Positions 11,528-24,765 of a DNA stretch of 37,068 bases are shown piece after piece. The stretch is from positions 1-37,068 of the forward strand of contig WTKN01000058.1 in assembly GCA_011524395.1 (NCBI GenBank). Reading direction: 5' to 3'. Numbering within the stretch: the first letter of the stretch is position 1; each line of letters begins with the position of its first letter. Made by a program: the position numbers and the translations under genes. The notes under the pieces were generated by a model, which saw only the letters and a list, made by a program, of their open reading frames with translations, was not told the DNA's origin and ran no database searches. Source of the stretch: Moorena sp. SS36440bin_2 (GTDB lineage Bacteria; Cyanobacteriota; Cyanobacteriia; Cyanobacteriales; Coleofasciculaceae).

Positions 11528-12799
11528 ATGCGTTTACTATGCCTGAGCAATGGTCATGGAGAGGATGTGATTGCTGTCCAAATTCTACAGGAATTGCAAC
11601 ATTACTCGATTTGTCCAGAACTAGCCGCCTTACCCTTGGTTGGGGAAGGAAAAGCTTATGTGCCATTAGATATCCCCATTATCGGCTCCGTTGAGCAGAT
11701 GCCATCGGGTGGATTTATCTATATGTCCCAACAGCAAGTGTGGCGTGATGTGCAGGGAGGCTTAGTGCAATTGATTTGGTCTCAATTAAAAGCAATTCGC
11801 CGTTGGGCTAAATCAGGGGACTTTATCCTAGCAGTAGGCGATATCGTACCACTGTTGTTTGCCTGGTGGAGTGGTTTACCCTATGGCTTTGTTGGTACTG
11901 CCAAATCCGAATACTATTTGCGGGATGAATCGGGATGGTTAGCCAATCGACCCCGTTGGGAAGGGTGGTCAGGCTCGGTATATTTGCCTTGGGAGCGTTG
12001 GCTGATGTCTAATCGCCGTTGTCATGGGGTTTTTCCTAGAGATACCCTGACCACAGAGATCTTAAAGCAGTGGTCTATCCCAGCTTTTGATCTGGGTAAT
12101 CCGATGATGGATGGGATTTATCCAGACTATCCAGAACCGATGGTTTATGACAAAAATGCAGAATTAAACGAAACTAAGCGTACCCTAACCATTACCTTAC
12201 TACCGGGTTCCAGAATACCGGAAGCTTATCACAACTGGGATCAAATTATCTTGGCAGCATCAGGGTTACTGGATACTTTTGCGTCGCGATCGCTTTTGTT
12301 TCTCGCTGCCATTGCTCCAGGATTAAGCCAAGACCCTTTACGGGAGGTTTTAGTCGCTCATAGTTGGAGTGAAGCCACCCTGCCATCCCATCCATTCAAT
12401 CTCCAGCTCCAGGACAAACAAGCTTTGGCCTTTACCAAGCAAAATGGCACACTGATTTTAACCCAGAACGACTATAACCTCTGCCTGCTCCAAGGGGATT
12501 TCTGTATCGCCATGGCAGGCACAGCCACAGAGCAATTTGTCGGGTTAGGAAAACCAGCCATTGCCATGGCAGGAGTTGGTCCCCAATATACCCCTGCTTT
12601 TGCCGAAGCCCAAACTCGCTTGTTAGGTCCATCGTTAGTAATAGCACAGCAACCAGAATTTGTGGCAACCATAGCGAAAGAGTTATTCCAGAATCCCGAC
12701 AAGTTACAGCTAATAGCAGAAAATGGTCAGCGACGCCTTGGTCAACCAGGGGCAGCAGATCGGATTGCTAAGTGTTTGATAGAAAAGATTAATTCTTAA
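11528..12799 (+). CDS. Lipid-A-disaccharide synthase-related protein (LpxB paralogue)
   Basis: A 423-residue protein of a cyanobacterial family distantly related to LpxB and annotated as lipid-A-disaccharide synthase-related. It begins RLLCLSNGHGEDVIAVQIL, where the NGHGED replaces the TGEVSGD of true LpxB, and has LAVGDIVPLLFAWWSGLPYG, LPGSRIPEAYHNWDQI and a late block IAMAGTATEQFVGLGKPAIAMAG that corresponds to the donor-binding segment of GT-B enzymes. A true lpxB lies at 309-1541, so this is a second, divergent member whose acceptor is unknown. It stands alone on the plus strand, about 640 bases before the DUF3326 gene. Confidence 0.8.
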   Translation: MRLLCLSNGHGEDVIAVQILQELQHYSICPELAALPLVGEGKAYVPLDIPIIGSVEQMPSGGFIYMSQQQVWRDVQGGLVQLIWSQLKAIRRWAKSGDFILAVGDIVPLLFAWWSGLPYGFVGTAKSEYYLRDESGWLANRPRWEGWSGSVYLPWERWLMSNRRCHGVFPRDTLTTEILKQWSIPAFDLGNPMMDGIYPDYPEPMVYDKNAELNETKRTLTITLLPGSRIPEAYHNWDQIILAASGLLDTFASRSLLFLAAIAPGLSQDPLREVLVAHSWSEATLPSHPFNLQLQDKQALAFTKQNGTLILTQNDYNLCLLQGDFCIAMAGTATEQFVGLGKPAIAMAGVGPQYTPAFAEAQTRLLGPSLVIAQQPEFVATIAKELFQNPDKLQLIAENGQRRLGQPGAADRIAKCLIEKINS

Positions 12800-13435: not shown

Positions 13436-14746
13436 ATGACCCAAGTCTATACCAAAGATTTTGAAATCCAATGCTCTCCCTCACAGCGCACATGGAGAGA
13501 AATTTCCCAAAAAATTGCTGCGCTTCCCTTACCAGGTGTTCCCATTCGCTTGATTTTAACCAAGGTTGAAGGAGATACTCTCACCTTTGAATCCAGCTTT
13601 ATCGATACAGACAGAAAGCCGGTTTGGTCATCATTACTAGATATTAATATTCGTCAACGGGTTTCTAACCAACCGTTTGTAGCAGTTAGTATTATTCCCA
13701 CCGGAGTCAGAGCAGAAATTGGTGGTTTTGCGGGAGATGCTACTCCCAGTACCAATTTGTTAGCGACCGCTTGTGACTATCTGGTCACGAATCCCAATGC
13801 CGTTACAGCTTCGGATATCTATTTCGGTCAGGATAATGTGCTTTATCTGGAAGGGAATCTGATTTGTCAGTTACTACTGGGTAATATTGGAGTCATTCCA
13901 GAGAAGCGCAAAAACATTGCAGCGATTATTGAAAAGCCCAAAGATGAGCGATTTTTAAATAATGTTATTAATGCGCTCAATGGCTTGCGTGCTGTAGGGG
14001 GAATTAATATCGACCCTGTAGTGGTAACGGGTGGCCCAGTAGAAACTGCCTGTACCTATTCCCAGTATGGTAATGCTTCCGGGGAATTTAAAGGTATGGA
14101 CGAGTTGATGAAGGCTCTAGATGTGGTGGAAAATTCTTCCGCTAGGGCGGTGGCTTTAATGACCACTTTGGAAGTAGACGATAAAATTCGTCAAGCTTAC
14201 TACCGAGGGGAATCTATCCCCAATCCTTGGGGCGGTGCGGAAGCAATTATGACCCACATGCTCACTAATTTCTATCCCTTTACTGCTGCCCATGCTCCCT
14301 TATTATTAGAGTGGGAACATACGGGATTTGGTAAATTAGTAGACCCTAGGGATGGAGCAGAATTAATTTCCAGTGCCTATGTTTGTTCGCCCCTCAATGG
14401 TTTAATCAATTCTCCCCGTCCGGTAAGGTTTGACACTCCCGTAGCAGCAGGGGAAACCAGGATTTCTGTGGAGAATGTTTCGGCGGTGGTAATGCCAGAA
14501 ACAACCGTGGGAAATATTCCGTTCTTAGCATCTTTAGACCAAGGTGTGCCGGTAATCTTAGTTAAAGATAATACCACTAAGTACGATATTACTCCTGAAA
14601 GATTGCAAATTGAAACTAAAGGCAACCCGATATATCGTGTCAATAGCTACATGGAGGCGGCGGGATTACTGTTAGCCTTACGTAATGGTATTGCAGTTGA
14701 AAGTACAACTCGCCCAATGCCGCAACTTCAGCCAATTTTTCTGTAG
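13436..14746 (+). CDS. DUF3326-family protein
   Basis: A 436-residue protein I recognise as DUF3326-type, a family of unknown function in cyanobacteria and some eukaryotes. Characteristic features are VAVSIIPTGVRAEIGGFAGD followed by ATPSTNLLATACDYLVTNPN (about residues 80-120), DNVLYLEGNLICQLLLG, and the middle block VVTGGPVETACTYSQYGNAS with GMDELMKALDVVENS. No signal peptide or membrane segment is seen. It heads a run of nine plus-strand genes and its stop is only three bases from the start of a PLP decarboxylase, so the two are almost certainly translated from one message. The tight pairing suggests a role in the same pathway, perhaps on an amino acid or amine substrate; that is inference. 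No catalytic motif can be named. Confidence 0.7.
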   Translation: MTQVYTKDFEIQCSPSQRTWREISQKIAALPLPGVPIRLILTKVEGDTLTFESSFIDTDRKPVWSSLLDINIRQRVSNQPFVAVSIIPTGVRAEIGGFAGDATPSTNLLATACDYLVTNPNAVTASDIYFGQDNVLYLEGNLICQLLLGNIGVIPEKRKNIAAIIEKPKDERFLNNVINALNGLRAVGGINIDPVVVTGGPVETACTYSQYGNASGEFKGMDELMKALDVVENSSARAVALMTTLEVDDKIRQAYYRGESIPNPWGGAEAIMTHMLTNFYPFTAAHAPLLLEWEHTGFGKLVDPRDGAELISSAYVCSPLNGLINSPRPVRFDTPVAAGETRISVENVSAVVMPETTVGNIPFLASLDQGVPVILVKDNTTKYDITPERLQIETKGNPIYRVNSYMEAAGLLLALRNGIAVESTTRPMPQLQPIFL

Positions 14747-14749
14747 CTT

Positions 14750-16072
14750 ATGACTCAACCTTCTTCTGCTTATAAGCTCATCGCATCTCATAATCAGGAT
14801 GTTCAGGTGAGTCTTTATACTCCTGCCCACCAAGGAGTTGCTCAAAATAGCGTACGCCTGAGTGAAGAGATATATCAATATGATGTACCATTTCTGACTC
14901 GCCCTCGCACTGAGAGCATCGAAAAACATTTCTCTGAAATGTATGGCACTAAACATACGTTTTGGCTAACTGGGGGAGGCACTCAAGGGGTTTTAACCGC
15001 TTGTGCTTTATTGGGTACTCAGTACAAGCGAGTGGCGATCGCCCTCAACAGTCATATTGCCACCATAAACGGCATCATTTTAGCCGGATTAGAGCCTTAC
15101 TTTATTCCTTCTGAGTCCCTGATGCCTAATACTGAAGAGGTGATTACGGCTTTAGAAACCAGTGGCGTATCGGCTTTGTTACTAACTCATCCGAGTTATG
15201 AAGGTGTAACTATTGATATTGGTAAGATAGCTGATTACTGTCGCAAGCACGATCTGGCTTTAGCAGTAGATGAAGCCCACGGTAGTCATTTTCCCTTTCT
15301 GGACGAACAATGGCAATCAGCGATCGCATTTAAGGCAGATATCGTCACCCATAGTATGCACAAATATACTGGGAGTTTGGTACAAACTGCTTTATTGCAT
15401 TTACCCACTGACTCTAGGTTTAGTATTGAACAAGTTATGGGGGTGATGCCTTTATTTGAAACCACTACCCGCAGTAACCTGTTAATGCTGAGTATTGAAG
15501 ATGCGATTAAGAAGGGGTATTCTGAGGAAGGTCAAGCTTTATTTTGGCAAGCTATTGGTGAATGCGATCGCCTGCGTAGTCAATTGGATACTTACGGCAA
15601 GGTGTTAACTTACGATCCTCAAGTTAGCGATCCTCTGAAAATCTATTTAAAAAGCGATCGCACTACAGGGCAAGAGTTAGCAGAGCTGTTGTACGAACGC
15701 GGGATTGATGGGGAATTTGCTGGTGAAGAGGGATTGTTATTAATTTTCTCTTTCCATCACAATCCACAAGATTTCCAATTTATGAGAGAAACCTTAGCAG
15801 CAATTGTGCCAAGTTTGAGGGAAAAAGCACCAAAAGAGACGTTATCTGACAGTTACTTTTGCCGTCGCCCTCAAATGAGGACTTTACCTAAAGATGCTTT
15901 CTTTAGCCGGAAAGAAAAATTACCCATTGGGCAAGCATTAGGTAAAATAAGCGGTTGCTGTATCAAGAAAGTTCCCCCAGGGAGTCCAATTTTGATACCA
16001 GGAGAAGAAGTTACTCAGTGGCATCTGCAACGTTTATCTCCTGATACTGTTGTTGAAGTAGTGGGGGAGTGA
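14750..16072 (+). CDS. PLP-dependent Orn/Lys/Arg-type decarboxylase
   Basis: A 440-residue fold-type I PLP enzyme of the Orn/Lys/Arg decarboxylase family without the N-terminal wing domain, like the short Gram-positive and cyanobacterial enzymes. Seen in order: YTPAHQGV (substrate-loop equivalent), FWLTGGGTQG (phosphate cup, about 72-80), LLLTHPSYEGVTIDI, the cofactor-ring aspartate and histidine in AVDEAHGSHFPF (172-183), and the Schiff-base lysine Lys205 in THSMHKYTGSL. The C-terminal small domain ends in IPGEEVTQWHLQRLSPDT, typical of the family. The reaction would release CO2 from a basic amino acid to give a polyamine precursor; the substrate is not readable. It is three bases from DUF3326 and six from the first methyltransferase. 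Confidence 0.85.
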   Translation: MTQPSSAYKLIASHNQDVQVSLYTPAHQGVAQNSVRLSEEIYQYDVPFLTRPRTESIEKHFSEMYGTKHTFWLTGGGTQGVLTACALLGTQYKRVAIALNSHIATINGIILAGLEPYFIPSESLMPNTEEVITALETSGVSALLLTHPSYEGVTIDIGKIADYCRKHDLALAVDEAHGSHFPFLDEQWQSAIAFKADIVTHSMHKYTGSLVQTALLHLPTDSRFSIEQVMGVMPLFETTTRSNLLMLSIEDAIKKGYSEEGQALFWQAIGECDRLRSQLDTYGKVLTYDPQVSDPLKIYLKSDRTTGQELAELLYERGIDGEFAGEEGLLLIFSFHHNPQDFQFMRETLAAIVPSLREKAPKETLSDSYFCRRPQMRTLPKDAFFSRKEKLPIGQALGKISGCCIKKVPPGSPILIPGEEVTQWHLQRLSPDTVVEVVGE

Positions 16073-16078
16073 TTAACG

Positions 16079-16711
16079 ATGATCGAAGAACAAGCCAAAG
16101 ATTTTTTAGAAACAAGACCTTGGTTATCTGGGATTTGCGATAGCGAAAGTACTGAGGAATTAAAAACTAAGTACGATAGTTGGGCGAATACCTATGATGC
16201 AGATGTAGGAGAAGATTGGTCTTTTATGCCTGCCAACATAGCACGGACATTAAGCAAACTTCTTCCTAATAAAGATGCCACAATCTTAGATGCTGGTGCT
16301 GGGACAGGGTTAGTGGGTGAAGCCTTAGCCCAACAGGGATATACTAATGTGACTGCTGTTGATTTGTCAGAAAAAATGTTAGCGATCGCTAAAGAGAGAC
16401 AAGTCTACAAGGCTCTCCATCAGTGTAATTTAGAAGATTCCCAAATTTTTAGCAATTCAGTAACTTTTGAGGCTATTATTGCTGCAGGGATTTTTGCTTA
16501 TGCTCATGCTGGGGTTGAGGTATTAAACAATCTATTCAGTCTTTTAAAGGAAGAAGGAATCTTCTTGTTCACGATACGGGAAGATTATCGCCGTGAAATG
16601 CAAACAGCCTTAGAGCAATTACCGTGGACACTAGTTAGTGAAGAGGGTTTTCCGATATATGACGAAGCCAAGTTGATGTATCTTCTGGCTTTTAAAAAGG
16701 AGCGATCTTAA
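16079..16711 (+). CDS. Class I SAM-dependent methyltransferase, copy 1
   Basis: A 210-residue METTL27/WBSCR27-like methyltransferase. It has the preface LKTKYDSWANTYDADV, SAM motif I in ILDAGAGTGLVGEAL (about 69-83), post-I AVDLSEKMLAIAK, and a later FEAIIAAGIFAYAHAG strand corresponding to motif II. A strong GGGGGAG lies before the ATG, only six bases after the decarboxylase stop. From about residue 46 to the penultimate residue it is identical to copy 2 at 19249-19881, and the DNA from about 16211 to 16706 also appears identical by eye, while the first 45 residues differ at several positions. The neighbour genes suggest it methylates an intermediate of the same pathway. Confidence 0.85.
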   Translation: MIEEQAKDFLETRPWLSGICDSESTEELKTKYDSWANTYDADVGEDWSFMPANIARTLSKLLPNKDATILDAGAGTGLVGEALAQQGYTNVTAVDLSEKMLAIAKERQVYKALHQCNLEDSQIFSNSVTFEAIIAAGIFAYAHAGVEVLNNLFSLLKEEGIFLFTIREDYRREMQTALEQLPWTLVSEEGFPIYDEAKLMYLLAFKKERS

Positions 16712-16759
16712 TGATTTAGAAAATTGAAAGACCGACTATATCTTGAGGATTTAGGATTT

Positions 16760-17773
16760 ATGTCCAATGAAATTCTGCTAGACAACTGGTATATTGTTGG
16801 TAAAATAGACGACATAAAACCAGGTAGTAAGAAGAAACAAAAGTTATTTGGAGAAGAACTAATCTTATGGCGCGGCAACTCTCCTGAATCTCCCGTTCTC
16901 GCATGGCAGGATAGATGCATCCATCGGGGTGTTTCTCTTAATCTGGGAAAGATAGTTGGCGATCGCCTTACTTGTATGTATCATGGATGGGAGTACGATC
17001 AATCTGGCAAGTGCGTAATTATCCCATCTCTTCCTGGGGAGGCACCTCCAGCAAGTTTTTGCGTAAAGACCTATAAGTGTAAAGAATGTTTCGGCTATGT
17101 ATGGGTTAGCCTAGGGAACCCTACTCAAAACATTCCGCCATTTCCAGAATGGGACAATTTGGAGTATCGTAAACTGCTGGTTGGTCCTTACCACTTTCGG
17201 ACTAGTGGATTTCGTGTCATCGAAAATTCCTTCGATCTCTCTCATCTTCCTTTTGCACACTCCAGCTCTTTAGGAGATCCAAGTCACCCTACAGTTGGAG
17301 ATTATGAAGTGGAATTTAACCAAGAGAAACTCACCATAGGCAACCTTAGCCAATGGCATCGAGATCCTGATTGTACTGCTACTGGTAATGGTTCCTTAAC
17401 CAACTATCCATTCATAAATATCTATCCTCACCTGAAGATACACGCACTTAAACATATATACAATACCAGCAGAACTATGCACTGGGTTATGAATGTTACC
17501 CCAATAGAGGAGGAAGAATGTTTGGTCTGGGTAACATTCATAATGAACTATGGACAAGAAATACCAGAATCAGAGATGCAAGCTATCCAAGACAAGATTG
17601 CTCGTGAAGATGCTTTGCTCTTAGAATCGCAACGTCCAGCATGTCTGCCTCTAGTTCCTTCAAATAATATTGATAGGCAATTTTTACCAGAAGTACATGT
17701 TAAGTGCGATCGGGCATCTGTAGCTTACCGTCGATGGCTCAAGGATTTAGGAATTACTTTCGGGGTTTGTTGA
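16760..17773 (+). CDS. Rieske-type oxygenase alpha subunit
   Basis: A Rieske non-haem iron oxygenase of the VanA/pheophorbide-oxygenase-like branch. The [2Fe-2S] ligands are Cys53 and His55 in DRCIHRG and Cys72 and His75 in CMYHGW. The mononuclear iron ligands are the two histidines in ENSFDLSHLPFAH (about 162 and 167). The late segment QDKIAREDALLLESQRP and VHVKCDRASVAYRRWL is the C-terminal signature of this branch. Such enzymes hydroxylate, demethylate or desaturate small molecules and need an external reductase, which is not in this window. I prefer ATG 16760 with a TAGGA just upstream; an in-frame TTG at 16724 adds 12 residues. The gene lies between the methyltransferase and CmcI-like genes of cassette 1 and has no counterpart in cassette 2. 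Confidence 0.85.
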   Translation: MSNEILLDNWYIVGKIDDIKPGSKKKQKLFGEELILWRGNSPESPVLAWQDRCIHRGVSLNLGKIVGDRLTCMYHGWEYDQSGKCVIIPSLPGEAPPASFCVKTYKCKECFGYVWVSLGNPTQNIPPFPEWDNLEYRKLLVGPYHFRTSGFRVIENSFDLSHLPFAHSSSLGDPSHPTVGDYEVEFNQEKLTIGNLSQWHRDPDCTATGNGSLTNYPFINIYPHLKIHALKHIYNTSRTMHWVMNVTPIEEEECLVWVTFIMNYGQEIPESEMQAIQDKIAREDALLLESQRPACLPLVPSNNIDRQFLPEVHVKCDRASVAYRRWLKDLGITFGVC

Positions 17774-17895
17774 GTTTTCTTCGATTATCCTAGGGGTAGT
17801 TCGGCACTTTTTTATCACAAGCTATAGAACTATCAAGTGGCATAAAAAATAATTTACCACAGATATTAATTAAATTAATTAGTAGTCAAAGCCTG

Positions 17896-18624
17896 ATGGT
17901 CAAATCGAACTTATCTGAACAAGAAATATCTGATAATAAAAGGTTCGTTAAAATCTCCGAGCGAGAAGATAGATGTGATATTCCCAAGTCGGCTTGGAGA
18001 CCTCTAACAAACAATGCCTATTTACAGACGTGGAAAGGGGTACTTCTGGAAAAAGACCCCATGCAAATTGCAGCCTATCCGATGCTGCTGGGCGAGTTGC
18101 AACCCAAGACGATTATTGAATTAGGAGCACTTAAGGGGGGAAGTGCAATTTGGTTAGCAGATCACTTAGAATTATTTGGTATTGAAGGTGAGGTTTACTG
18201 TGTTGATAACGACCTTTCTCAGCTTGATGAGAAAGCTAAAGCAGACTCTAGAGTTCATTTTTTAGAAGGTGATTGTCGAGAAATTAGTGATGTTTTATCT
18301 GTGGAATTGCTTGATAATCTACCTCATCCCTGGTTAGTTATAGAGGATGTTCATGACAACCTAGTTGGTATCCTCGAACATTTTCATCATAATGGTTTGC
18401 AAACTGGAGATTACCTAATTATAGAAGATACTAACACGTTTATGTGGGAAGTATGGTCTGATTGGAAAGACCAGGAATTAATCCAGCGAGGTTCTCACAA
18501 AATGGATGACTTAAGAAACTGGTTAATGAAGCATCAAGATGAGTATTTAATCGATACTTACTACCAGGATATGTACGGTTATAATGCTTCAAAAAATTGG
18601 AATTCTATACTCAAAATAGTTTGA
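17896..18624 (+). CDS. CmcI-like SAM-dependent methyltransferase/hydroxylase-family protein, copy 1
   Basis: A 242-residue member of the cephalosporin-hydroxylase/rhamnosyl-O-methyltransferase (CmcI) family. Visible elements are IIELGALKGGSAIWLADHL (SAM-binding loop, about 73-91), the acidic strand CVDNDLS with Asp104, and LVIEDVHDN with Glu150-Asp151, which fit the metal-binding acidic residues of CmcI. In cephamycin synthesis CmcI works with CmcJ in methoxylation; family members here probably O-methylate a hydroxylated substrate, which would suit the Rieske oxygenase just upstream. About 120 bases separate it from the Rieske stop, and the bases before the ATG (AGTAGTCAAAGCCTG) are a degraded version of the MT-CmcI junction in cassette 2. 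Copy 2 is about two-thirds identical by eye. Confidence 0.75.
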   Translation: MVKSNLSEQEISDNKRFVKISEREDRCDIPKSAWRPLTNNAYLQTWKGVLLEKDPMQIAAYPMLLGELQPKTIIELGALKGGSAIWLADHLELFGIEGEVYCVDNDLSQLDEKAKADSRVHFLEGDCREISDVLSVELLDNLPHPWLVIEDVHDNLVGILEHFHHNGLQTGDYLIIEDTNTFMWEVWSDWKDQELIQRGSHKMDDLRNWLMKHQDEYLIDTYYQDMYGYNASKNWNSILKIV

Positions 18625-18692
18625 ACACATAAAACTATTTTGCTGTAATACTTTCTGAGCAAATACTTTGACAAATTTACTAACATAAAGTT

Positions 18693-18992
18693 ATGTCTTA
18701 CTCTAAGTCAAAAATGGATCTAGAACAACTAAAAAATAAGTGGCAAGAGCAAGGATTAATTTGTGAAGTATGGGAGTTATATCCAGGAGATTCTTGGTCA
18801 GATCCAGGTCATAAGACTGATGAATTTTTTGTTCTCTTAGAAGGACAAATGAAAGTTTCTTGCCAAGGTAAGGTTTCTAATCTTGAAATTGCTCAAGAAA
18901 TTATGGTTCCGGCTAAAGAACCTCATACCGTAAGCAATCATGGCGAAACGGCCGGTCGTGTTTGCTGGATACATCACCCCAACTTTGCTTGA
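18693..18992 (+). CDS. Small cupin-domain protein, copy 1
   Basis: A 99-residue single-domain cupin. The first cupin motif is PGDSWSDPGHKTDEFFVLLEG, with a histidine and acidic residue as likely metal ligands; the second is IMVPAKEPHTVSNHG with the late histidine. Small cupins act as metal-dependent isomerases, dioxygenases or binding proteins. It follows copy 1 of the CmcI-like gene by 68 bases. Compared with copy 2 it ends earlier: the tail WIHHPNFA replaces WIYGYEHEEGVTGTRKN, yet a matching stretch encoding DDVTGNRKN survives downstream at about 19051-19080, so this copy appears to have lost its original end. An alternative start is ATG 18714. Confidence 0.75.
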   Translation: MSYSKSKMDLEQLKNKWQEQGLICEVWELYPGDSWSDPGHKTDEFFVLLEGQMKVSCQGKVSNLEIAQEIMVPAKEPHTVSNHGETAGRVCWIHHPNFA

Positions 18993-19050
18993 GCCATTGA
19001 GTCAGGAAGCAGTGCTTCGATCATATTACTGGGTTTATAGCTACCAATGA

Positions 19051-19085
19051 CAGGATGATGTCACCGGTAATCGTAAGAACTAAAA
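19051..19085 (+). repeat. Vestige of the duplicated cupin 3' end
   Basis: GATGATGTCACCGGTAATCG followed by TAAGAACTAAAAT closely matches the end of cupin copy 2 (about 20917-20951: GGTGTGACGGGTACTCGTAA, then GAACTAAAAT). In frame it reads DDVTGNRKN and then stop. It marks the right edge of the first duplicated unit. Confidence 0.6.
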
Positions 19086-19212
19086 TAATGTTTGTCATTT
19101 TTATGTTTGGGATAGTTCTACTGGATTAGTTCGATGGATGACCAATTTCGATACCCAGCCTGAAGATATTGATCTATTTATCGACAAGCTTTCTTCTCTT
19201 GCTATGGCCTCG
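19084..19212 (+). pseudogene. C-terminal remnant of a fold-type I PLP enzyme (threonine-aldolase-like)
   Basis: Open after TAA at 19081, this frame reads CHFYVWDSSTGLVRWMTNFD then TQPEDIDLFIDKLSSLA. That pattern, an LVRWM strand followed by x-F/W-D-T-x-x-E-D-I/V-D and a terminal helix, is the usual end of low-specificity threonine aldolases and resembles class V aminotransferase ends. The rest of the enzyme is missing. The frame runs straight into methyltransferase copy 2, so translation from ATG 19138 would fuse 37 remnant residues to that enzyme. It suggests a PLP gene once stood upstream of cassette 2. Confidence 0.45.
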
Positions 19213-19248
19213 GTGAACCCTGAAAATGCCATTACCTTAGAACAGAGT

Positions 19249-19881
19249 ATGTCCAGAGAACAAGCTAAAGATATTTCAGAAACAAGACCTTGGTTATCTG
19301 GAATTTGTGATAGCCAAAGTACTGAGGAATTAAAAACTAAGTACGATAGTTGGGCAAATACCTATGATGCAGATATAAAAGAAGATTGGTCTTTTATGCC
19401 TGCCAACATAGCACGGACATTAAGCAAACTTCTTCCTAATAAAGATGCCACAATCTTAGATGCTGGTGCTGGGACAGGGTTAGTGGGTGAAGCCTTAGCC
19501 CAACAGGGATATACTAATGTGACTGCTGTTGATTTGTCAGAAAAAATGTTAGCGATCGCTAAAGAGAGACAAGTCTACAAGGCTCTCCATCAGTGTAATT
19601 TAGAAGATTCCCAAATTTTTAGCAATTCAGTAACTTTTGAGGCTATTATTGCTGCAGGGATTTTTGCTTATGCTCATGCTGGGGTTGAGGTATTAAACAA
19701 TCTATTCAGTCTTTTAAAGGAAGAAGGAATCTTCTTGTTCACGATACGGGAAGATTATCGCCGTGAAATGCAAACAGCCTTAGAGCAATTACCGTGGACA
19801 CTAGTTAGTGAAGAGGGTTTTCCGATATATGACGAAGCCAAGTTGATGTATCTTCTGGCTTTTAAAAAGGAGCGATATTAA
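19249..19881 (+). CDS. Class I SAM-dependent methyltransferase, copy 2
   Basis: Near-duplicate of the methyltransferase at 16079, with the same preface LKTKYDSWANTYDAD, motif I ILDAGAGTGLVGEAL and post-I AVDLSEKM. Starting at ATG 19249 gives 210 residues, exactly the length of copy 1, so I prefer this start; ATG 19138 would give a 247-residue form with an N-terminal tail from a PLP-enzyme remnant. The ribosome site before 19249 is weak (CAGAG), so the longer form cannot be excluded. The residues after about position 45 match copy 1 except for the last one (Tyr for Ser). The stop TAA overlaps the first base of the next gene ATG, indicating translational coupling. Confidence 0.8.
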   Translation: MSREQAKDISETRPWLSGICDSQSTEELKTKYDSWANTYDADIKEDWSFMPANIARTLSKLLPNKDATILDAGAGTGLVGEALAQQGYTNVTAVDLSEKMLAIAKERQVYKALHQCNLEDSQIFSNSVTFEAIIAAGIFAYAHAGVEVLNNLFSLLKEEGIFLFTIREDYRREMQTALEQLPWTLVSEEGFPIYDEAKLMYLLAFKKERY

Positions 19882-20624
19882 TGAGCAGTCAAAGTATGGT
19901 CAAATCTAACTTATCTGATCAAGAAACCCTAGAGAATAAGCGGTTTGTCAAAATCTCTGAGCGAGAAGATAGAGGTGATATTCCCCAGTCAACTTGGCTA
20001 ACTTTGACTGAAAACTATCATTTACAAACCTGGAAAGGGATACCAATGGACAAAAGTCCTATAGAAATTGCCCTTTATCCAATGCTGATTTACGAACTCC
20101 AACCAAAGACAATTATTGAACTTGGTGCAGATACTGGAGGAAGTGCAGTATGGTTAGCAGATCAGTTGAAGTTATTTGATATTGAAGGTCTTGTCTACTC
20201 TGTTGATATCGATTTATCCTTACTTTATCAAAAAGCCAAAGCCCAACCCAAGATAAAATTTTTGGAAGGCGATTGTAACCAGATCGATCTGGTTTTATCG
20301 ACCACACTGCTTTCTACACTTCCTCATCCTTGGTTAATCATAGAAGATGCTCATGTTAATTTAGTCGGTATCCTGGATTATTTTCATAATAATGGTTTAC
20401 AAAATGGAGATTATTTAATTATTGAAGACACAAATAAAGCTTTATGGGAGGCTTGGTCAGATTGGGAAGATAAAGAATTTATTGAACGGATGAAATGTAA
20501 GCTTAATTTACTCAAAAACTGGCTGAGCCAGCATCAATATGAGTACTTAATTGATACTCAATATCAAGATTTGTTTGGTTATAACGGCTCAAAAAATTGG
20601 AATTCAATGTTAAAAAGGATTTAA
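19881..20624 (+). CDS. CmcI-like SAM-dependent methyltransferase-family protein, copy 2
   Basis: A 247-residue CmcI-family protein with IIELGADTGGSAVWLADQL (SAM loop), the acidic strand SVDIDLS, LIIEDAHVN (metal-site Glu-Asp) and DYLIIEDTN. The ATG at 19881 overlaps the preceding stop by one base; an internal ATG at 19896 begins the region that aligns with copy 1 (MVKSNLS). It is clearly paralogous to 17896-18624 but has diverged at roughly one third of positions by eye, unlike the adjoining methyltransferases. It is followed after five bases by cupin copy 2. Role as in copy 1: probably methyl transfer to an oxygen or nitrogen of a small molecule. Confidence 0.75.
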   Translation: MSSQSMVKSNLSDQETLENKRFVKISEREDRGDIPQSTWLTLTENYHLQTWKGIPMDKSPIEIALYPMLIYELQPKTIIELGADTGGSAVWLADQLKLFDIEGLVYSVDIDLSLLYQKAKAQPKIKFLEGDCNQIDLVLSTTLLSTLPHPWLIIEDAHVNLVGILDYFHNNGLQNGDYLIIEDTNKALWEAWSDWEDKEFIERMKCKLNLLKNWLSQHQYEYLIDTQYQDLFGYNGSKNWNSMLKRI

Positions 20625-20629
20625 ATAAA

Positions 20630-20947
20630 ATGATGAATGAATCTAGAATCAAAGAGATCAAGAACACTTGGCAAAAAAAGGGGTTCAAGTGCGAAATTTC
20701 AATTACTCCGCCTGGAGAGTCTTGGTCAAGTGATGGTCATGAAACAGACGAGGTAATTATACCCTTGGAAGGGGAATTAGAATTGTCTTTACAAGGTAAA
20801 ACGTTTCGCTCCACCATTGGGGAAGAAATAATTATTCCTGCTGGTGAACCTCACACATTTAAGAGTGTTGGCAACGTAGCTAGTCGTGTGTATTGGATAT
20901 ACGGCTACGAACATGAAGAAGGTGTGACGGGTACTCGTAAGAACTAA
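20630..20947 (+). CDS. Small cupin-domain protein, copy 2
   Basis: A cupin of 105 residues from ATG 20630 (five bases after the CmcI-like stop; a TTG at 20597 would overlap that gene and is less likely). Motif 1 is PGESWSSDGHETDEVIIPLEG and motif 2 IIIPAGEPHTFKSVG, giving two histidines and acidic residues that could hold a metal. It retains a C-terminal tail GYEHEEGVTGTRKN that copy 1 has lost. It ends the plus-strand cluster; the next genes run on the opposite strand. Confidence 0.75.
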   Translation: MMNESRIKEIKNTWQKKGFKCEISITPPGESWSSDGHETDEVIIPLEGELELSLQGKTFRSTIGEEIIIPAGEPHTFKSVGNVASRVYWIYGYEHEEGVTGTRKN

Positions 20948-21045
20948 AATATCGATTAAACTTGTATAGTTGCAGCAAGTACCGTCTGAATTGTCTGCTG
21001 AACTAAACACTGACATTTTCTGAGTTTTTTACTAAATCGCCCTTT

Positions 21046-21597
21046 CTAATCAAACTCAGGTGCCCAAACTTCCACCACAGGTAATTACCAACCAGGAAGC
21101 AATTCCGGCACTTGCAGCACATCCCCATCCCCCAGCACAACCTTATCTCGATTAAGGCGATAAACTTCCATGGTGCGAGTTCTCGGATCCACTAACACCC
21201 CAATTTTAGTTCCCAATTCCATAAATTGCTGGATCTTCCGGCGTAATTTAGCCAAACTATCAGTTCTAGATTTAACTTCAAACATCAAGTCAGGAACTAA
21301 CTCCGCGTAACCTTCTGTAGTGCGAGGTAAACGTTCAGCTAGGATAAAAGAAGCATCGGGAGCACGGACATCTCCATCTTCGTTAGGTAAACGAAAACCA
21401 CCACTAGAAGCAGTTACCCTGCCTAGTCTACGAGGTCGTACCCAGTTTGATAACTGGGTAACAATAGCAGCAGCTACTTGATCTGATTCTAACCCTGAAG
21501 GACTCATAACAATAATTTCTCCAGCCACTAGTTCCATCTGATAATCAGGATGTTCAGCTTGCAGTTTTTCTAAGTCTTTTACTGTTAAACTAGGCAT
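21046..21597 (-). pseudogene. Uma2-family nuclease interrupted by a late stop codon
   Basis: Starts MPSLTVKDLEKLQAEHPDYQ and shows Uma2 features: ELVAGEIIVMSPSG, VRAPDASFIL (catalytic aspartate), MFEVKSRTDSL (E-x-K) and GVLVDPRTRTMEVYR. The frame stops at TAA 21085-21087 after ELLPGW, but reading on gives LPVVEVWAPEFD and a stop at 21046, which is the normal family C-terminus (PGWELPV...). So one glutamate codon has become TAA. The 170-residue product lacks only 13 residues and may still fold; I label it a pseudogene with caution. It stands downstream of a broken xisI on the same strand. Confidence 0.65.
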
Positions 21598-21654
21598 TGT
21601 TAAAATATCCTATTTATAGCGATTATTGCATTTATGAGGTACAATTATAAACCT

Positions 21655-21694
21655 CAAAGTCCCCCTTATTAAGGGGGATTTAGGGGGATCCCTT
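21655..21694. repeat. Palindromic CCCCCTTATTAAGGGGG repeat
   Basis: TCCCCCTTAT and TAAGGGGGA form a 9-bp stem with almost no loop, followed by the partial echo TTTAGGGGGATCCC. This is a dispersed palindrome of a type common in cyanobacterial intergenic DNA. It lies between the broken xisI and the Uma2 gene and might also slow transcription, but no T-run follows on the minus strand. Confidence 0.6.
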
Positions 21695-21728
21695 TTCACT
21701 TCATGGAAAATAGAATTGCTATATTTAA

Positions 21729-22116
21729 TCAATCAACAGCAAATCCAGTATATTGGCGTTTATAAGGAGCATGGTAGGCTAAGACAATATCTTCAGGGGG
21801 AACACCCCATTATACTAATTCATTAGCAACACCAATTTCTGTGCCATCGTGCTGTATCCAAATTTTGTCGTTTTTAAGGTCAATTTGAAGAACACAGCCT
21901 CTTAAACGCCGATTGCCATGCCACCCCACATTCATCAGTTGATAGTGATCTCCTTGAACATCAAATATTTTTTGGACTTCAATATCTCCATATCTAGGCT
22001 TATATTGCCCGTATTCATTGATGATTTTTTTGACTAATTCTCTATAGCGATGCAGCGCGGTCTTGGGGGTTTCCCCCATGAGCGACTGCATCAAGACAGT
22101 GTTCTAGTTTTTCCAT
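21729..22116 (-). pseudogene. xisI: xisI-like gene, broken by a repeat insertion and a nonsense codon
   Basis: XisI was named as a controlling factor for fdxN-element excision in Anabaena; most homologues are found in xisH-xisI pairs of uncertain role. The body is recognisable: YRELVKKIINEYGQYKP, YQLMNVGWHGNRRLRG, KIWIQHDGTEIGVANELV. The original start ATG at 22116 (MEKLEH) is separated from the body by a 52-base insertion (about 22045-22096) that shifts the frame. A TAA at 21810-21812 follows ANELV where the intact copy at 24430 has glutamate (ANELLELG), after which PPEDIVLAYHAPYKRQYTGF continues to the true stop at 21729. Two independent lesions make it non-functional. Confidence 0.8.
22047..22096. 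repeat. 50-bp palindromic dispersed repeat, copy A (inside xisI)
   Basis: Begins GCGATGCAGCGCGGTCTTGG and ends GAGCGACTGCATCAAGA. It has nested inverted arms (GATGCAG with CTGCATC; TGGGGG with CCCCCA around TTT). An identical 50-base copy lies at 35231-35280. Removing about 52 bases here restores the xisI frame as MEKLEH joined to YRELVKK, so it is an insertion and not part of the gene. Confidence 0.9.
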
Positions 22117-22520
22117 TGTTTAATTACCTCCTTTTTGGTATCATCTATCATTAATTTTATTTGATAGTTAGCTACTACCTTTTGAGTAAAAACCAGAGTA
22201 AAAAATGCTTCGTAAACATCTTCGCTAATGGCTAAATACATTTTTCTTTCTGGTTCAATATTTTCTAATACCAGGCGATAATTAAGAAACTGTCCTAAAG
22301 CACTATGAAATTCAGCAATTAGAGAAGGACGATTAAAAGTTTTAATTTCTACAGCAATTTTTTGTTGATATTTTTGGGCTGCAATTAATTTTTATGCCCC
22401 TAAATCAACATACATATCAACTCCCCCATAATCAAGATAGAGAGGGTCATCAGTAATTATCCAACCTTCTTTGACTAGGGCGTTTTTAACAGTATCATGA
22501 AAGATATCTTTAGCTGGCAT
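22104..22520 (-). pseudogene. xisH: xisH-like gene with an in-frame stop
   Basis: Reads MPAKDIFHDTVKNALVKEGW, then WIITDDPLYLDYGGVDMYVD, stops at TAA 22392-22394 (codon 43), and continues KLIAAQKYQQKIAVEIKTFN ... to TAG at 22104. The intact homologue at 24753-25169 has the same length (138 residues) and glutamate at codon 43 (AGEKLIAA), so this is a GAA-to-TAA type nonsense change. The downstream part holds the conserved VEIKTF strand (E-x-K of a PD-(D/E)XK-like fold). As in the intact pair, the xisH stop overlaps the xisI start. Confidence 0.8.
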
Positions 22521-22677
22521 ATAATAATGTTTTATAACATTAGCTGATTACGCATTAAGGTTAGGATATTGATACAAGCAGCAAAAGCTATTGTAGTCAA
22601 ATTTTGCCTTTTGCCTCTTGCCTTGCGCGTAGCGCTATAATTGCCATCAGGTTATCCCCCAAAACTAAACTATCAAT

Positions 22678-23325
22678 TTAATGGAGCAATTGCTTTAGTC
22701 TTTGACGAAAAGCTCGTAACGCAGGACTTCTCCCGGTTTCACGGCTTTGAGCTAAAACCTCTGCTACCAGGTCTGGAATTGGTAATCTGGGGAAGGTCGG
22801 ACTGGTGGTAACTTGCCGGTACTCACCTCCTTGCAACAGGTCAATCCTGAGTTGATTTTTTTCATAGCGCCAGAGTTCAGGCACACCTAAGTTGGCATAG
22901 ACATCCAGTTGAGTCTTGGAGGTAACATCCACTTCAATGGCTAGATCTGGCGGTGGATCAATAGTGAGATCGACGCGCCGCTTGCCTCGCATTCTAGCGT
23001 GGTTTTGGATGTAGAAGCATTGATCCGGTTCAATGCCACTGTCCATATTTTCTCCCTTGAAGGTAGTGGAACCAAAGCACTCGCAGTCGATTTCTAACTC
23101 ATCAAGCAAAATTTTAACCAAATCACCGAGCAGTTCTTTATCGACTTCGTGTTCTGGGGTAGGCATTCTGATTTCTAAGGTTCCGTGGCTATAGGCAATA
23201 CGAGCAGAGCGATGTTCCCCTAGTTCTTCCAGAACAGACTCAAATTCAGCCCACTCTAGGTTATGAATCAATAGTCTTTGACCTGGGGGAACGGTAAGTT
23301 GTTGGAGTAGGAGAGTAACAGCCAT
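22678..23325 (-). CDS. Uma2-family PD-(D/E)XK nuclease-like protein
   Basis: A 215-residue Uma2 protein. It has FESVLEELGEHRSARIAYSH for the N-terminal helix and strand, GTLEIRMPTPEHEVDKELLG, a cysteine-containing strand IDCECFGSTTFKG, the acidic catalytic site GIEPDQCFYI, and LAIEVDVTSKTQLDVY (E-x-D/S-K region), then LGVPELWRYEKNQLRIDLL. Uma2 proteins are predicted nucleases of the restriction-endonuclease fold and occur in dozens per genome in cyanobacteria; their biological role is unsettled. Intact length. It sits 43 bases downstream of the HsdR-N-like gene on the same strand, so these two may share a transcript. Confidence 0.8.
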   Translation of the reverse strand: MAVTLLLQQLTVPPGQRLLIHNLEWAEFESVLEELGEHRSARIAYSHGTLEIRMPTPEHEVDKELLGDLVKILLDELEIDCECFGSTTFKGENMDSGIEPDQCFYIQNHARMRGKRRVDLTIDPPPDLAIEVDVTSKTQLDVYANLGVPELWRYEKNQLRIDLLQGGEYRQVTTSPTFPRLPIPDLVAEVLAQSRETGRSPALRAFRQRLKQLLH

Positions 23326-23368
23326 GGTGAATGTTCTATGATTTTGGATTTTGGATAAACATCAAACG

Positions 23369-23995
23369 TTAATCTAATACCAATCGACCAATAGCTTTGA
23401 GAGCAGCTAAAACTTGCTCCAGTTCATTTTCCCTGTCAATAGATAAGGCATAAGAACGACCATAGATGGGAACATCTGCTGGTTGGAGTTTAACAAACAC
23501 AAACTCTCTCCCATTGACTAGAAAACCAAACCTTGGCTTGTCACTGTTGGAGCCATCCAGCATATAAGCTAGAGCTTGAGGCAGTGCTGCCATCACATCA
23601 AACTTGGTACTTTTGGATTCGATCACCAGTATCCAAAGTCTCTGTCGCACTACTAAAACATCTATCCTGCCTCTTACAATTACTCCATTGTCTTCAGCAG
23701 CAATTTCCACAGAAGTTTCAGTTCTGATTGAAAAGGGGGGTTGAAAGAATCCAGCGAGATCGAGTAATGGTGATAAAACCACCATTTTTACACCCTCTTC
23801 TAAGAGAGGGCGGCGATTAACCAAGTTAAAGTAGTTGTTGCGGACTCTTTCTAGAGAACGTTTTTCCTGATCCGTTAAAGAGGGTAAGTTGTCTTGCCAA
23901 TCTAAAAAAAAATGACTATCGGTTGTTAGTTGTAGTCCAAAGTGTTCTTGCAGTTCTTCTAGGCTAAGATCTTGAGCTTGAATCGTTTGAACCAT
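23369..23995 (-). CDS. Type I restriction HsdR N-terminal-like nuclease-fold protein
   Basis: A 208-residue protein of a cyanobacterial family often annotated as restriction endonuclease subunit R. The probable PD-(D/E)XK site is IVRGRIDVLVV followed by LWILVIESKSTKFDV (D...E-x-K). The N-terminal half is helical (LTDQEKRSLERVRNNYFNLV), with LLEEGVKMVVLSPLLDLAGF before the core. No helicase domain is attached and there is no HsdM or HsdS nearby, so it is not part of a complete type I system. It is the first of a two-gene unit with the Uma2 gene downstream. Confidence 0.7.
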   Translation of the reverse strand: MVQTIQAQDLSLEELQEHFGLQLTTDSHFFLDWQDNLPSLTDQEKRSLERVRNNYFNLVNRRPLLEEGVKMVVLSPLLDLAGFFQPPFSIRTETSVEIAAEDNGVIVRGRIDVLVVRQRLWILVIESKSTKFDVMAALPQALAYMLDGSNSDKPRFGFLVNGREFVFVKLQPADVPIYGRSYALSIDRENELEQVLAALKAIGRLVLD

Positions 23996-24429
23996 AATGA
24001 GTCATTGGTTGAATATCGTGATTTTTTTGGCATCATGGAAGTAACTCCTATTTAGGTGGGAGGAAAACCGCGCTGGAGATGGTTAACGGGCATGACCAGC
24101 GCGGTTACTAGTATCAGTCTTTACCTTCTATAGTATATATAACTTCTCGAAAAAATGCAAGGGCAAATAAAAATATTTTACATTTATTTAAAATTAGTTT
24201 TATTTACAATTTATAGACTAAATTATGTGTAATTAATTTACCTAACTTTTTTATTAAATGAGCTACAAATTATTGGTTTTTAGGGAGCAGTAATTACCTC
24301 TGATACCAGGGCTATTTCTTGCGTCGGACTCTAATATGTTCCCTGTTCCCAGATCCGCTGTTCCCTGTTCCCTGTTCCCTAAAAAACCATAAATATCTAC
24401 TTAAACTCGCAAACCACTATAGAACAAAT
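23996..24429. other. Intergenic region with an 11-bp inverted repeat and heptamer repeats
   Basis: AACCGCGCTGG (24066-24076) and CCAGCGCGGTT (24096-24106) form an inverted repeat with a 19-base loop, located 70-110 bases upstream of the HsdR-N-like gene. AT-rich DNA follows, then GTTCCCT heptamers at about 24339-24382. No gene. Confidence 0.65.
24066..24106. promoter_or_regulatory. Inverted repeat upstream of the HsdR-N-like gene
   Basis: Two perfect 11-base arms (AACCGCGCTGG and its complement) flank 19 bases. The position upstream of the minus-strand gene at 23995 would suit an operator or leader hairpin, but it could also be an ordinary dispersed palindrome. Confidence 0.35.
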
Positions 24430-24765
24430 CTAACCAACAGCAAAGCCATCATATTGACGCATAAATGGGGCATGATACCCTAGGACAATATCCTGTTTCG
24501 GTATCCCTAATTCAAGTAATTCATTCGCCACCCCAAACTCGGTGCCATCATGTTGAATCCAGATTTTTCCATCAATAATATCAATGTGGATCAAAGGTCC
24601 GAAAACACGACGATAATTTTGCCATCCTGCATGAAAGACTTGATAATGATCTTGCTCAGGATCGAAGAATTTATAGACTTTGATCTCTTCATTGGCTAAC
24701 TTAACCAGACTATGCTTTTCCAAGGTTTCCTGAATCAGACGACGATACTGAATTAACTTATCCAC
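24430..24765 (-). CDS. xisI: XisI-family protein (intact pair)
   Basis: A complete 111-residue XisI homologue: MDKLIQYRRLIQETLEKHSL, then YQVFHAGWQNYRRVFGPLIH, KIWIQHDGTEFGVANELLEL, and the end GIPKQDIVLGYHAPFMRQYDGFAVG. XisI was described with XisF and XisH in fdxN-element excision of Anabaena; standalone pairs in non-heterocystous strains probably do something else, and a nuclease/partner or toxin-antitoxin-like relation has been suggested from context only. Its start overlaps the xisH end by 13 bases, so the two are translationally coupled. It provides the reference that shows the copy at 21729 is broken. Confidence 0.85.
   Translation of the reverse strand: MDKLIQYRRLIQETLEKHSLVKLANEEIKVYKFFDPEQDHYQVFHAGWQNYRRVFGPLIHIDIIDGKIWIQHDGTEFGVANELLELGIPKQDIVLGYHAPFMRQYDGFAVG

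What the first reader, a model, noticed from the sequence alone, without database searches (positions are those of the whole stretch)
13436..20947. Undescribed-looking gene cluster: DUF3326, PLP decarboxylase, Rieske oxygenase and two methyltransferase/CmcI/cupin cassettes
Nine plus-strand genes with very short gaps (3, 6, 1-overlap and 5 bases at several joints) combine a DUF3326 protein of unknown role, a basic-amino-acid-type decarboxylase, a Rieske oxygenase, four SAM-dependent methyltransferase-family proteins and two cupins. There is no NRPS, PKS or RiPP machinery. The enzyme set fits tailoring of an amine made by decarboxylation, with hydroxylation then methylation. Gene families are seen; product and pathway are inferred. 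I do not know a described pathway with this set.
Basis: partly seen in the sequence, partly recalled or inferred. Interest (0 to 1): 0.78.

Follow-up and report, generated by a model that had tools for sequence, protein, structure and literature searches.

The report
Swappable alkaloid gene cluster with DUF3326
A cyanobacterium carries a gene cluster, built around a protein of unknown function that is nearly always paired with an amino-acid decarboxylase, that probably makes a small nitrogen compound and whose decorating enzymes are swapped between strains like plug-in parts.

Summary
The nine genes are real and correctly named by family. The genome is Moorena-like. The stable core is a second, cluster-type DUF3326 plus the PLP decarboxylase: of 388 genomes of the order, 18 hold this DUF3326 and 17 the decarboxylase, and the 17 are all among the 18. 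In four actinobacterial loci the same DUF3326 clade is overlapped by a decarboxylase of another family and fold. DUF3326 is the most constrained gene measured (dN/dS 0.04-0.08), with no solved relative or confident fold match found. What follows the core varies: methyltransferase, CmcI, cupin, Rieske, PhyH, TauD, radical SAM, NRPS or PKS. The second cassette here is a 1.86-kb insert absent from M. bouillonii. CmcI and Rieske belong to the enzyme pool that also serves saxitoxin clusters, but 0 of 7 published saxitoxin-contacting residues are kept. Most likely it makes a decarboxylated amino-acid alkaloid; substrate and product are unknown. Two papers hold the word DUF3326; nothing seen of them describes such a pathway.

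The parts
13436..14746 (+). DUF3326-2: cluster-type DUF3326 protein, 436 aa, paralogue of the housekeeping cyanobacterial DUF3326 (core gene 1)
   Evidence: Pfam PF11805 243 bits; separate housekeeping copy in the genome, 589 bits; clade support 100/99; dN/dS 0.04-0.08 in 5 comparisons
14750..16072 (+). PLP-dependent Orn/Lys/Arg decarboxylase-like enzyme of fold type I, 440 aa (core gene 2)
   Evidence: OKR_DC_1 75 bits; nearest solved chain 2x3l, Orn/Lys/Arg decarboxylase family protein, E 7e-27; D174, H177, H204, K205 invariant in 17 rows; 17 of 388 genomes, all 17 with DUF3326-2
16079..16711 (+). MT1: class I SAM-dependent methyltransferase, 210 aa
   Evidence: Methyltransf_25 50 bits; nearest solved chain methyltransferase-like 27, E 7e-13
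16760..17773 (+). Rieske non-haem iron oxygenase of the SxtT/SxtDIOX (GxtA) type; the ORF listing starts it at TTG 16724, the likelier start is ATG 16760 (my searches used 16763-17770, without the first Met)
   Evidence: SxtDIOX 304 bits, SxtT 292 bits, nearly full length; dS 0.00 to the M. bouillonii copy
17896..18624 (+). CmcI1: CmcI/SxtX-family protein, 242 aa
   Evidence: RMNT_CmcI 60 bits; CmcI 2br3 E 5e-23; 65% and 64% to the CmcI genes of loci L137 and L139
18693..18992 (+). Cupin 1, 99 aa
   Evidence: Cupin_2 36.5 bits
19059..19087 (+). 29-bp direct repeat at the left edge of the second cassette, 90% identical to 20923-20951
   Evidence: self-BLAST
19138..19881 (+). MT2: second copy of MT1 (an in-frame ATG at 19249 is a possible start); 19257-19884 is 98.2% identical to 16087-16714
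   Evidence: self-BLAST; MT1/MT2 dS 0.03 against 0.22-0.24 to M. bouillonii
19881..20624 (+). CmcI2: second CmcI/SxtX-family protein, 67% to CmcI1, closer to copies in another Moorena genome
   Evidence: RMNT_CmcI 56 bits; 82% to L060 and 85% to L149, both of G497
20630..20947 (+). Cupin 2 (ORF listing starts it at TTG 20597; ATG at 20630 is likelier)
   Evidence: Cupin_2 42.8 bits
20923..20951 (+). right copy of the 29-bp direct repeat; M. bouillonii lacks the stretch between the two copies
11528..12799 (+). Flanking LpxB-like gene, left neighbour of DUF3326-2 in all four same-genus genomes (one further ORF between them in G418): fixed border of the exchangeable locus, not part of the pathway

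Best explanation
A biosynthetic gene cluster of an undescribed type. Core: DUF3326-2 and a PLP decarboxylase act as one unit that turns a (probably basic) amino acid into a decarboxylated, nitrogen-rich scaffold. The decarboxylase removes CO2; DUF3326-2, a paralogue of a near-universal cyanobacterial protein of unknown function, does a second obligatory step on the substrate or the product. MT, CmcI/SxtX-type, cupin and Rieske proteins then oxidise and methylate the scaffold, and these decorating cassettes are gained, lost and exchanged between strains, so that strains should make different variants of one scaffold. Shown: gene content, co-occurrence, purifying selection, cassette exchange, a different decarboxylase family in Actinobacteria. 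Inferred: that DUF3326-2 is an enzyme, that the product is a small polar alkaloid, and the order of steps. Not known: the substrate.
For: Co-occurrence over 388 genomes of the order: DUF3326-2 in 18, decarboxylase in 17, both in 17. Named loci: a decarboxylase lies beside or within a few genes of DUF3326-2 in 22 of 24 (two of the 24 come from one MAG, and many are the same genomes as). In 4 of 4 actinobacterial loci it is of another family (Orn_Arg_deC_N; fold type III by recall), its ORF overlapping DUF3326-2 by 14-20 bases. dN/dS: DUF3326-2 0.04-0.08 (5 comparisons), decarboxylase 0.14-0.23 (5). A FAD oxidoreductase at the DUF3326-2 locus is shared, 42% identical over 520 aa, by Moorena and a Streptomyces. 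Tailoring content changes while DUF3326-2 stays 98-99% identical in the four same-genus genomes. Leads to basic or guanidine substrates: Rieske nearest to SxtT/SxtDIOX; a GntC/VioD-like PLP enzyme and a PRMT-type methyltransferase in Okeania hirsuta; a TauD protein nearest to TmpA/butyrobetaine dioxygenase.
Against: No product, substrate or expression data. The GntC, VioD and TmpA matches are below their curated cut-offs, and 0 of 7 published saxitoxin-contacting residues are kept in the Rieske, so the guanidine reading is only a lead. Exceptions to the pairing: G630 (85% complete) has a DUF3326-2 fragment at a contig end and no decarboxylase match anywhere in the genome at E<=1e-60; L094 (Endobugula) has no PLP match in its 20 kb and no decarboxylase among the flanking ORFs scanned; L092 is cut by its contig end. 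DUF3326-2 is interrupted by stops or frame changes in Trichodesmium (L034/L090), Prochloron (L064/L082), two Okeania (L063/L080, L069/L095) and the Streptomyces L099, so the cluster is dispensable or those assemblies hold errors. No confident fold match, so the chemistry of DUF3326 is a guess. Operon structure is not shown.
Confidence: 0.6

Rival explanations
1. The cluster modifies a polyamine: the decarboxylase makes or remodels a polyamine (nspC-like and Orn/Lys/Arg decarboxylases both serve polyamine metabolism) and the other enzymes hydroxylate and methylate it for cell-wall or stress use, not as a diffusible natural product.
For: Both decarboxylase types belong to families that include polyamine-pathway enzymes (family roles recalled); a TauD relative of trimethyllysine/butyrobetaine dioxygenases occurs in some clusters.
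Against: Patchy presence (17 of 388 genomes), interrupted copies and rapid cassette exchange look like secondary metabolism; NRPS or PKS genes join it in two relatives; the two actinobacterial decarboxylases scanned score far below the nspC equivalog cut-off (146 and 173 against 409 bits).
Confidence: 0.15
2. DUF3326-2 is not an enzyme of the pathway but a resistance or bypass copy of the housekeeping DUF3326, protecting the producer from its own product.
For: It is a second copy of a protein matched in 378 of 386 phylum genomes; self-resistance paralogues of housekeeping targets are a known pattern in gene clusters (general knowledge).
Against: It also sits beside decarboxylases in Actinobacteria and a Glassbacteria bin; a family search over 14 control genomes found DUF3326 only in Synechococcus elongatus, so many bacteria have no such target; about 30% identity to the housekeeping copy is far for a resistance copy.
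Confidence: 0.1
3. Loose pile-up in a hot spot: DUF3326 and the decarboxylase are one old module, and the methyltransferase, CmcI, Rieske and cupin genes are passengers of unrelated function.
For: Tailoring genes differ between strains and also occur without the core: 30 of the 43 genomes with CmcI (E<=1e-30) and 47 of the 52 with the Rieske (E<=1e-40) lack it; the Rieske was swapped recently (dS 0.00).
Against: MT-CmcI-cupin recurs after the decarboxylase in distant genera (Anabaena, Trichodesmium, Prochloron), mostly with short gaps; 8 of 10 comparisons of MT, CmcI and cupin genes with orthologues give dN/dS 0.12-0.28 (the other two 0.48 and 1.0).
Confidence: 0.12

Closest known systems
Saxitoxin (sxt) clusters, tailoring section (sxtT/H Rieske, sxtX; PMC3037375, passages seen)
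   Same: CmcI1 is 65% and 64% identical to the CmcI gene of two loci that look like sxt clusters (L137, L139), the Rieske 41-43%; sxtX is described as similar to cephalosporin hydroxylase
   Different: None of the nine genes is an SxtA-, SxtG- or carbamoyltransferase-type entry gene by Pfam; DUF3326 and the decarboxylase are not in the part of the printed gene table that I saw; 0 of 7 saxitoxin-contacting residues kept in the Rieske
Orn/Lys/Arg decarboxylases, fold type I (PF01276; solved relative 2x3l)
   Same: Family score over cut-off, PLP lysine and aspartate kept (roles recalled)
   Different: 28-29% identity to the other copy in the four same-genus genomes; tied to DUF3326-2
DUF3326 (PF11805), housekeeping form beside fed3 and DUF650 (PMC4284462, passage seen)
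   Same: Same Pfam family and glycine-rich motif
   Different: About 30% identity, different partner genes, patchy distribution
Guanitoxin (gnt) and capreomycidine/enduracididine pathways
   Same: One relative cluster (Okeania hirsuta L095) has a GntC/VioD-like PLP enzyme
   Different: That gene is not among the nine here; the match is below cut-off (199 against 415 bits for GntC, 89 against 391 for VioD)

Membership tests
DUF3326 (PF11805) | Score over the Pfam gathering cut-off across the profile | tested here: met
   243 bits against 25, profile positions 2-335 of 337
DUF3326 (PF11805) | Orthologue of the near-universal housekeeping protein | tested here: not met
   It is a paralogue: own 20-row clade with 100/99 support, and the genome holds a separate housekeeping copy (the tree tool flags a long-branch join of one third-group row next to this clade)
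Orn/Lys/Arg decarboxylase, fold type I | OKR_DC_1 over cut-off; PLP lysine and PLP-binding aspartate | tested here: met
   74.8 bits against 27; D174 and K205 invariant in 17 rows (their roles recalled); OKR_DC_1_C 22.8 against 24.2, just missed
Orn/Lys/Arg decarboxylase, fold type I | Decarboxylates ornithine, lysine or arginine | not testable with these tools
   Substrate cannot be told from sequence here
Saxitoxin-type Rieske oxygenase (SxtT/GxtA) | Full-length similarity with Rieske cluster and non-haem iron ligands | tested here: met
   304 and 292 bits over residues 4-336; the iron ligand Asp280 named and the Rieske and histidine motifs (recalled) are kept in the alignment
Saxitoxin-type Rieske oxygenase (SxtT/GxtA) | Residues that contact the saxitoxin scaffold | tested here: not met
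   0 of 7 positions named in PMC7293229 (passages) kept, counted by hand; the alignment is gapped there
Saxitoxin cluster | SxtA, SxtG and other entry genes | tested here: not met
   None among the nine genes; of the 33 other ORFs listed, 8 were scanned and 7 had a family, none of them an entry gene. The rest of the genome was not searched for them
CmcI family (PF04989) | RMNT_CmcI over cut-off | tested here: met
   60.1 and 56.2 bits against 23.2; CmcI crystal structure E 5e-23 for CmcI1
NRPS/PKS/RiPP cluster | A megasynthase in the cluster | tested here: not met
   None among the nine genes, but NRPS or PKS genes adjoin the core in two relatives; short RiPP precursors were not searched for

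The most novel reading that the evidence does not exclude
DUF3326 founds a new class of natural-product scaffold enzymes: together with an amino-acid decarboxylase of either of two unrelated folds it makes a previously unseen amine or guanidine scaffold in cyanobacteria and actinobacteria, and the housekeeping DUF3326 of nearly all cyanobacteria does a related, still unknown reaction in central metabolism.
Probability: 0.35. Interest if true: 0.82.

Novelty: new variant of a known kind. Interest (0 to 1): 0.62.

Why it matters
It gives a metabolic context to DUF3326, a family matched in 378 of 386 genomes drawn from the phylum and named by Pfam as of unknown function. A compact two-gene core that can be expressed in a laboratory host makes the reaction directly testable. 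It also shows that decorating enzymes of the saxitoxin kind belong to a wider pool that cyanobacteria shuffle between alkaloid-like clusters, and it marks a set of Moorena, Okeania, Trichodesmium and Prochloron genomes whose metabolites could be compared cassette by cassette.

Tried and rejected
Tried without yield: PDB sequence searches for DUF3326 (nothing meaningful); Foldseek of the DUF3326 model (pLDDT 80, pTM 0.86) against PDB: 0 matches at E<=0.001, TM normalised by the query at most 0.19 in the 50 rows listed; the viral-contig scan with the decarboxylase found no relative; plasmids: 27 records with decarboxylases of 23-29% identity and no DUF3326; Rfam at gathering scores: 0 families; the decarboxylase model was weaker (pLDDT 69, pTM 0.55) and is not used for argument. 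A third DUF3326 group (34-38% identity: L037, L038, L072-L075) was looked at in part: no cluster decarboxylase in the stretches by BLAST; a sulfotransferase in the one member scanned for it, L073.

Considered and rejected: a saxitoxin cluster (no entry genes among the nine, contact residues not kept); a single nine-gene operon (gaps of 122, 68 and 145 bases; neither supports nor excludes it); an assembly artefact for the duplicated methyltransferase (the copies differ at about 2% of sites and have different 5' flanks, and CmcI1 and CmcI2 differ by about 28% in DNA).

Rows left out: the structure alignment A4 has the window row and 16 of the 24 named loci; left out were L076 and L079 (near-duplicates), L080, L082, L090, L095 and L099 (interrupted) and L092 (cut). 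The decarboxylase alignment A5 has the window row and 16 rows from 14 loci. The DUF3326 tree has 43 rows. dN/dS was run on 21 orthologue pairs and 3 within-window pairs: cupin1 gave 1.0 on almost no changes, CmcI2 against L149 0.48, MT1 against MT2 0.73 on few changes, the Rieske no ratio (dS 0).


Full report
What is there. The window is contig 383 of a 7.75-Mb cyanobacterial genome. All nine reported genes are present and open: DUF3326, PLP decarboxylase, MT1, Rieske, CmcI1, cupin1, MT2, CmcI2, cupin2. Four of the eight joints are tight and four are not, so a single operon is not established; pattern scans for promoters and terminators do not help.

The core. DUF3326 here is not the housekeeping copy. 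A search of 386 phylum genomes matches DUF3326 in 378, mostly one copy at about 30% identity; the window's genome has its own housekeeping copy on contig 205. The cluster type (63% identity or more among cyanobacteria) forms a 20-row clade, support 100/99, with the actinobacterial, Glassbacteria and Endobugula copies (the tool flags long branches that meet, one of them at the join of a third-group row to this clade). Of 388 genomes of the order, 21 match at E<=1e-58; three of these are the third group at 34-37% identity, so 18 hold the cluster type. The cluster-type decarboxylase is in 17 of 388, all 17 among the 18. The exception, G630, is a real one as far as it goes: an 85%-complete genome with a DUF3326-2 fragment at a contig end and no decarboxylase match. 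Of 24 named loci, 18 are cyanobacterial; 17 of these have the decarboxylase in the stretch held: directly next in 12, after one PhyH gene in 4, after four genes in 1; the eighteenth (L092) ends inside DUF3326. The Glassbacteria locus has it in two pieces; Endobugula has no PLP match in its 20 kb and no decarboxylase among the flanking ORFs scanned. Two of the 24 come from one MAG (Moorena sp. SIO3H5), and many loci are the same genomes as, so the two counts are not independent.

Another decarboxylase in Actinobacteria. In the four actinobacterial loci (two Streptoalloteichus, a Pseudonocardiales bin, Streptomyces sp. NBRC 110611) no fold-I decarboxylase is found in the stretch. Instead an ORF of another decarboxylase family (Orn_Arg_deC_N, 35-43 bits against a cut-off of 23; fold type III by recall; best NCBIfam nspC at 146 and 173 bits for the two scanned, below its cut-off of 409) lies directly upstream, its ORF overlapping DUF3326-2 by 14-20 bases in 4 of 4 (start codons are ORF calls). 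Two unrelated folds with the same kind of chemistry beside the same partner is the strongest sign that DUF3326-2 works with a decarboxylation. In the Streptomyces locus a FAD oxidoreductase follows that is 42% identical over 520 aa to one in the Moorena bouillonii cluster; DUF3326 itself is split over frames there.

Constraint. Against orthologues, dN/dS is 0.04-0.08 for DUF3326-2 (5 comparisons), 0.14-0.23 for the decarboxylase (5) and 0.12-0.28 for MT1/MT2 (4). The AlphaFold2 model of DUF3326-2 is fair (pLDDT 80, pTM 0.86), but Foldseek finds no PDB match at E<=0.001 and sequence searches find no solved relative. That is no proof of a new fold.

The exchangeable part. After the core the content varies: MT-CmcI-cupin in Anabaena, Trichodesmium and Prochloron; TauD and PhyH added in Okeania SIO2C9 and Hormoscilla; PhyH, two copies of an unnamed 291-312-aa family, class II aldolase, FAD oxidase, 2-hydroxyacid dehydrogenase and a second decarboxylase in M. 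bouillonii; PhyH and an FkbM methyltransferase in SIO3I8; six ORFs of one radical SAM family in G482; EamA transporter and FAD oxidase in G233; radical SAM/B12, two decarboxylases and an NRPS in Cylindrospermum; PKS and NRPS before DUF3326 in Rhizonema. Of the 17 genomes with both core genes, MT is at the locus in 12, CmcI in 10, cupin in 10 (short in Trichodesmium) and Rieske in 3, plus a broken Rieske in Hormoscilla (my tally).

How the window's version arose. M. bouillonii has PLP-MT-Rieske-CmcI-cupin and continues, at the 29-bp repeat, into the sequence that follows the window's cluster; the gene next to it there (Uma2-like by recall) is interrupted by a 416-aa ORF. The window carries a further 1.86 kb (MT2-CmcI2-cupin2) between two copies of that 29-bp repeat. 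MT1 and MT2 are 98% identical over 628 bp (dS 0.03), closer to each other than to M. bouillonii (dS 0.22-0.24), whereas CmcI1 and CmcI2 are 67% identical at protein level and CmcI2 is closer (82-85%) to two copies in G497, the SIO3I8-type genome. So the second cassette probably came from another cluster or locus, with the MT part converted or used as the crossover. The Rieske shows no silent change against the M. bouillonii copy (dS 0.00) while MT1 and CmcI1 on either side have dS 0.24-0.30 (cupin1 0.02): it was exchanged very recently.

Link to saxitoxin tailoring genes. The Rieske is nearest among solved structures to SxtDIOX and SxtT, aligned almost end to end. Other places with CmcI and Rieske relatives include two loci, L137 and L139, that look like saxitoxin clusters: in L139 the ORF lengths of five genes equal those printed for sxtG, sxtH, sxtU, sxtN and sxtX of Lyngbya wollei, while two (sxtV, sxtW) differ by 6 and 3 bases (I assigned the names by recall and order, with no family search). 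Their CmcI genes are 65% and 64% identical to CmcI1. So CmcI1 belongs to the SxtX family, whose N-hydroxylase role is proposed in that 2011 paper and called untested there; later work was not searched. But the residues that a structure paper names as contacting the saxitoxin scaffold (PMC7293229, passages) are not kept in the window's Rieske, 0 of 7 by hand count in a gapped alignment, and none of the nine genes is an entry gene. This is shared tailoring stock, not a saxitoxin pathway. CmcI relatives (43 genomes, 30 without the core) and Rieske relatives (52 genomes, 47 without the core) are spread over the 388.

Mechanism and product. My reading is a decarboxylated amino-acid alkaloid made by the core pair and decorated by exchangeable oxidation and methylation cassettes. 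Leads to a basic or guanidine-bearing substrate come from relatives (GntC/VioD-like enzyme and PRMT-type methyltransferase in Okeania hirsuta, TmpA/butyrobetaine-type TauD in Okeania SIO2C9); the GntC, VioD and TmpA matches are under their curated cut-offs. I hold them as leads only.

Literature. Full-text searches: 'DUF3326' 2 papers (one seen as a passage, the other in the listing only), 'PF11805' 0, and combinations on Moorena/CmcI/cupin/decarboxylase (15 of 299 listed), Streptoalloteichus hindustanus clusters (10 of 33 listed), Moorena bouillonii/Rieske (12 of 84 listed), GntC/capreomycidine (2 of 2) and Okeania/guanidine (1 of 1): no pathway with this core among the titles and abstract openings shown. 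The library is open-access only.

Changes on checking: the Rieske start was corrected to ATG 16760, and G630 is now told as an exception.

Noticed in passing
   Followed up: partly
L077:13983-15825, L095:13427-15219, L140:5848-6735: An unnamed family of 291-312 aa, in tandem pairs in two DUF3326-2 clusters and once beside CmcI/TauD genes; the members scanned have no Pfam match, and the one scanned no NCBIfam match.
   Followed up: no
L067 and L101 (G482): Six ORFs in a row of one radical SAM family of about 510 aa follow the DUF3326-2/decarboxylase pair; Pfam match just under cut-off for the two scanned, no NCBIfam match for the one scanned.
   Followed up: no
L037, L038, L072-L075: A third DUF3326 group (34-38% identity), without the cluster decarboxylase in the stretch; in L072-L074 two further gene families recur beside it, one of them Sulfotransfer_5 in the member scanned, L073.
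   Followed up: partly
L092:202-3106: Uncultured Calothrix contig end: TauD piece, sulfotransferase, DUF6421 protein, then DUF3326-2; DUF6421 may be another partner.
   Followed up: no
L094:9731-10000: In Candidatus Endobugula sertula a decayed-looking cupin stretch (weak match over 34 aa) lies just upstream of DUF3326-2, with no decarboxylase found nearby.
   Followed up: partly
window 21044-24881: The stretch right of the cluster, with XisI-type and Uma2-like (recalled) genes, is rearranged between same-genus genomes, suggesting a recombination-prone border.
   Followed up: partly
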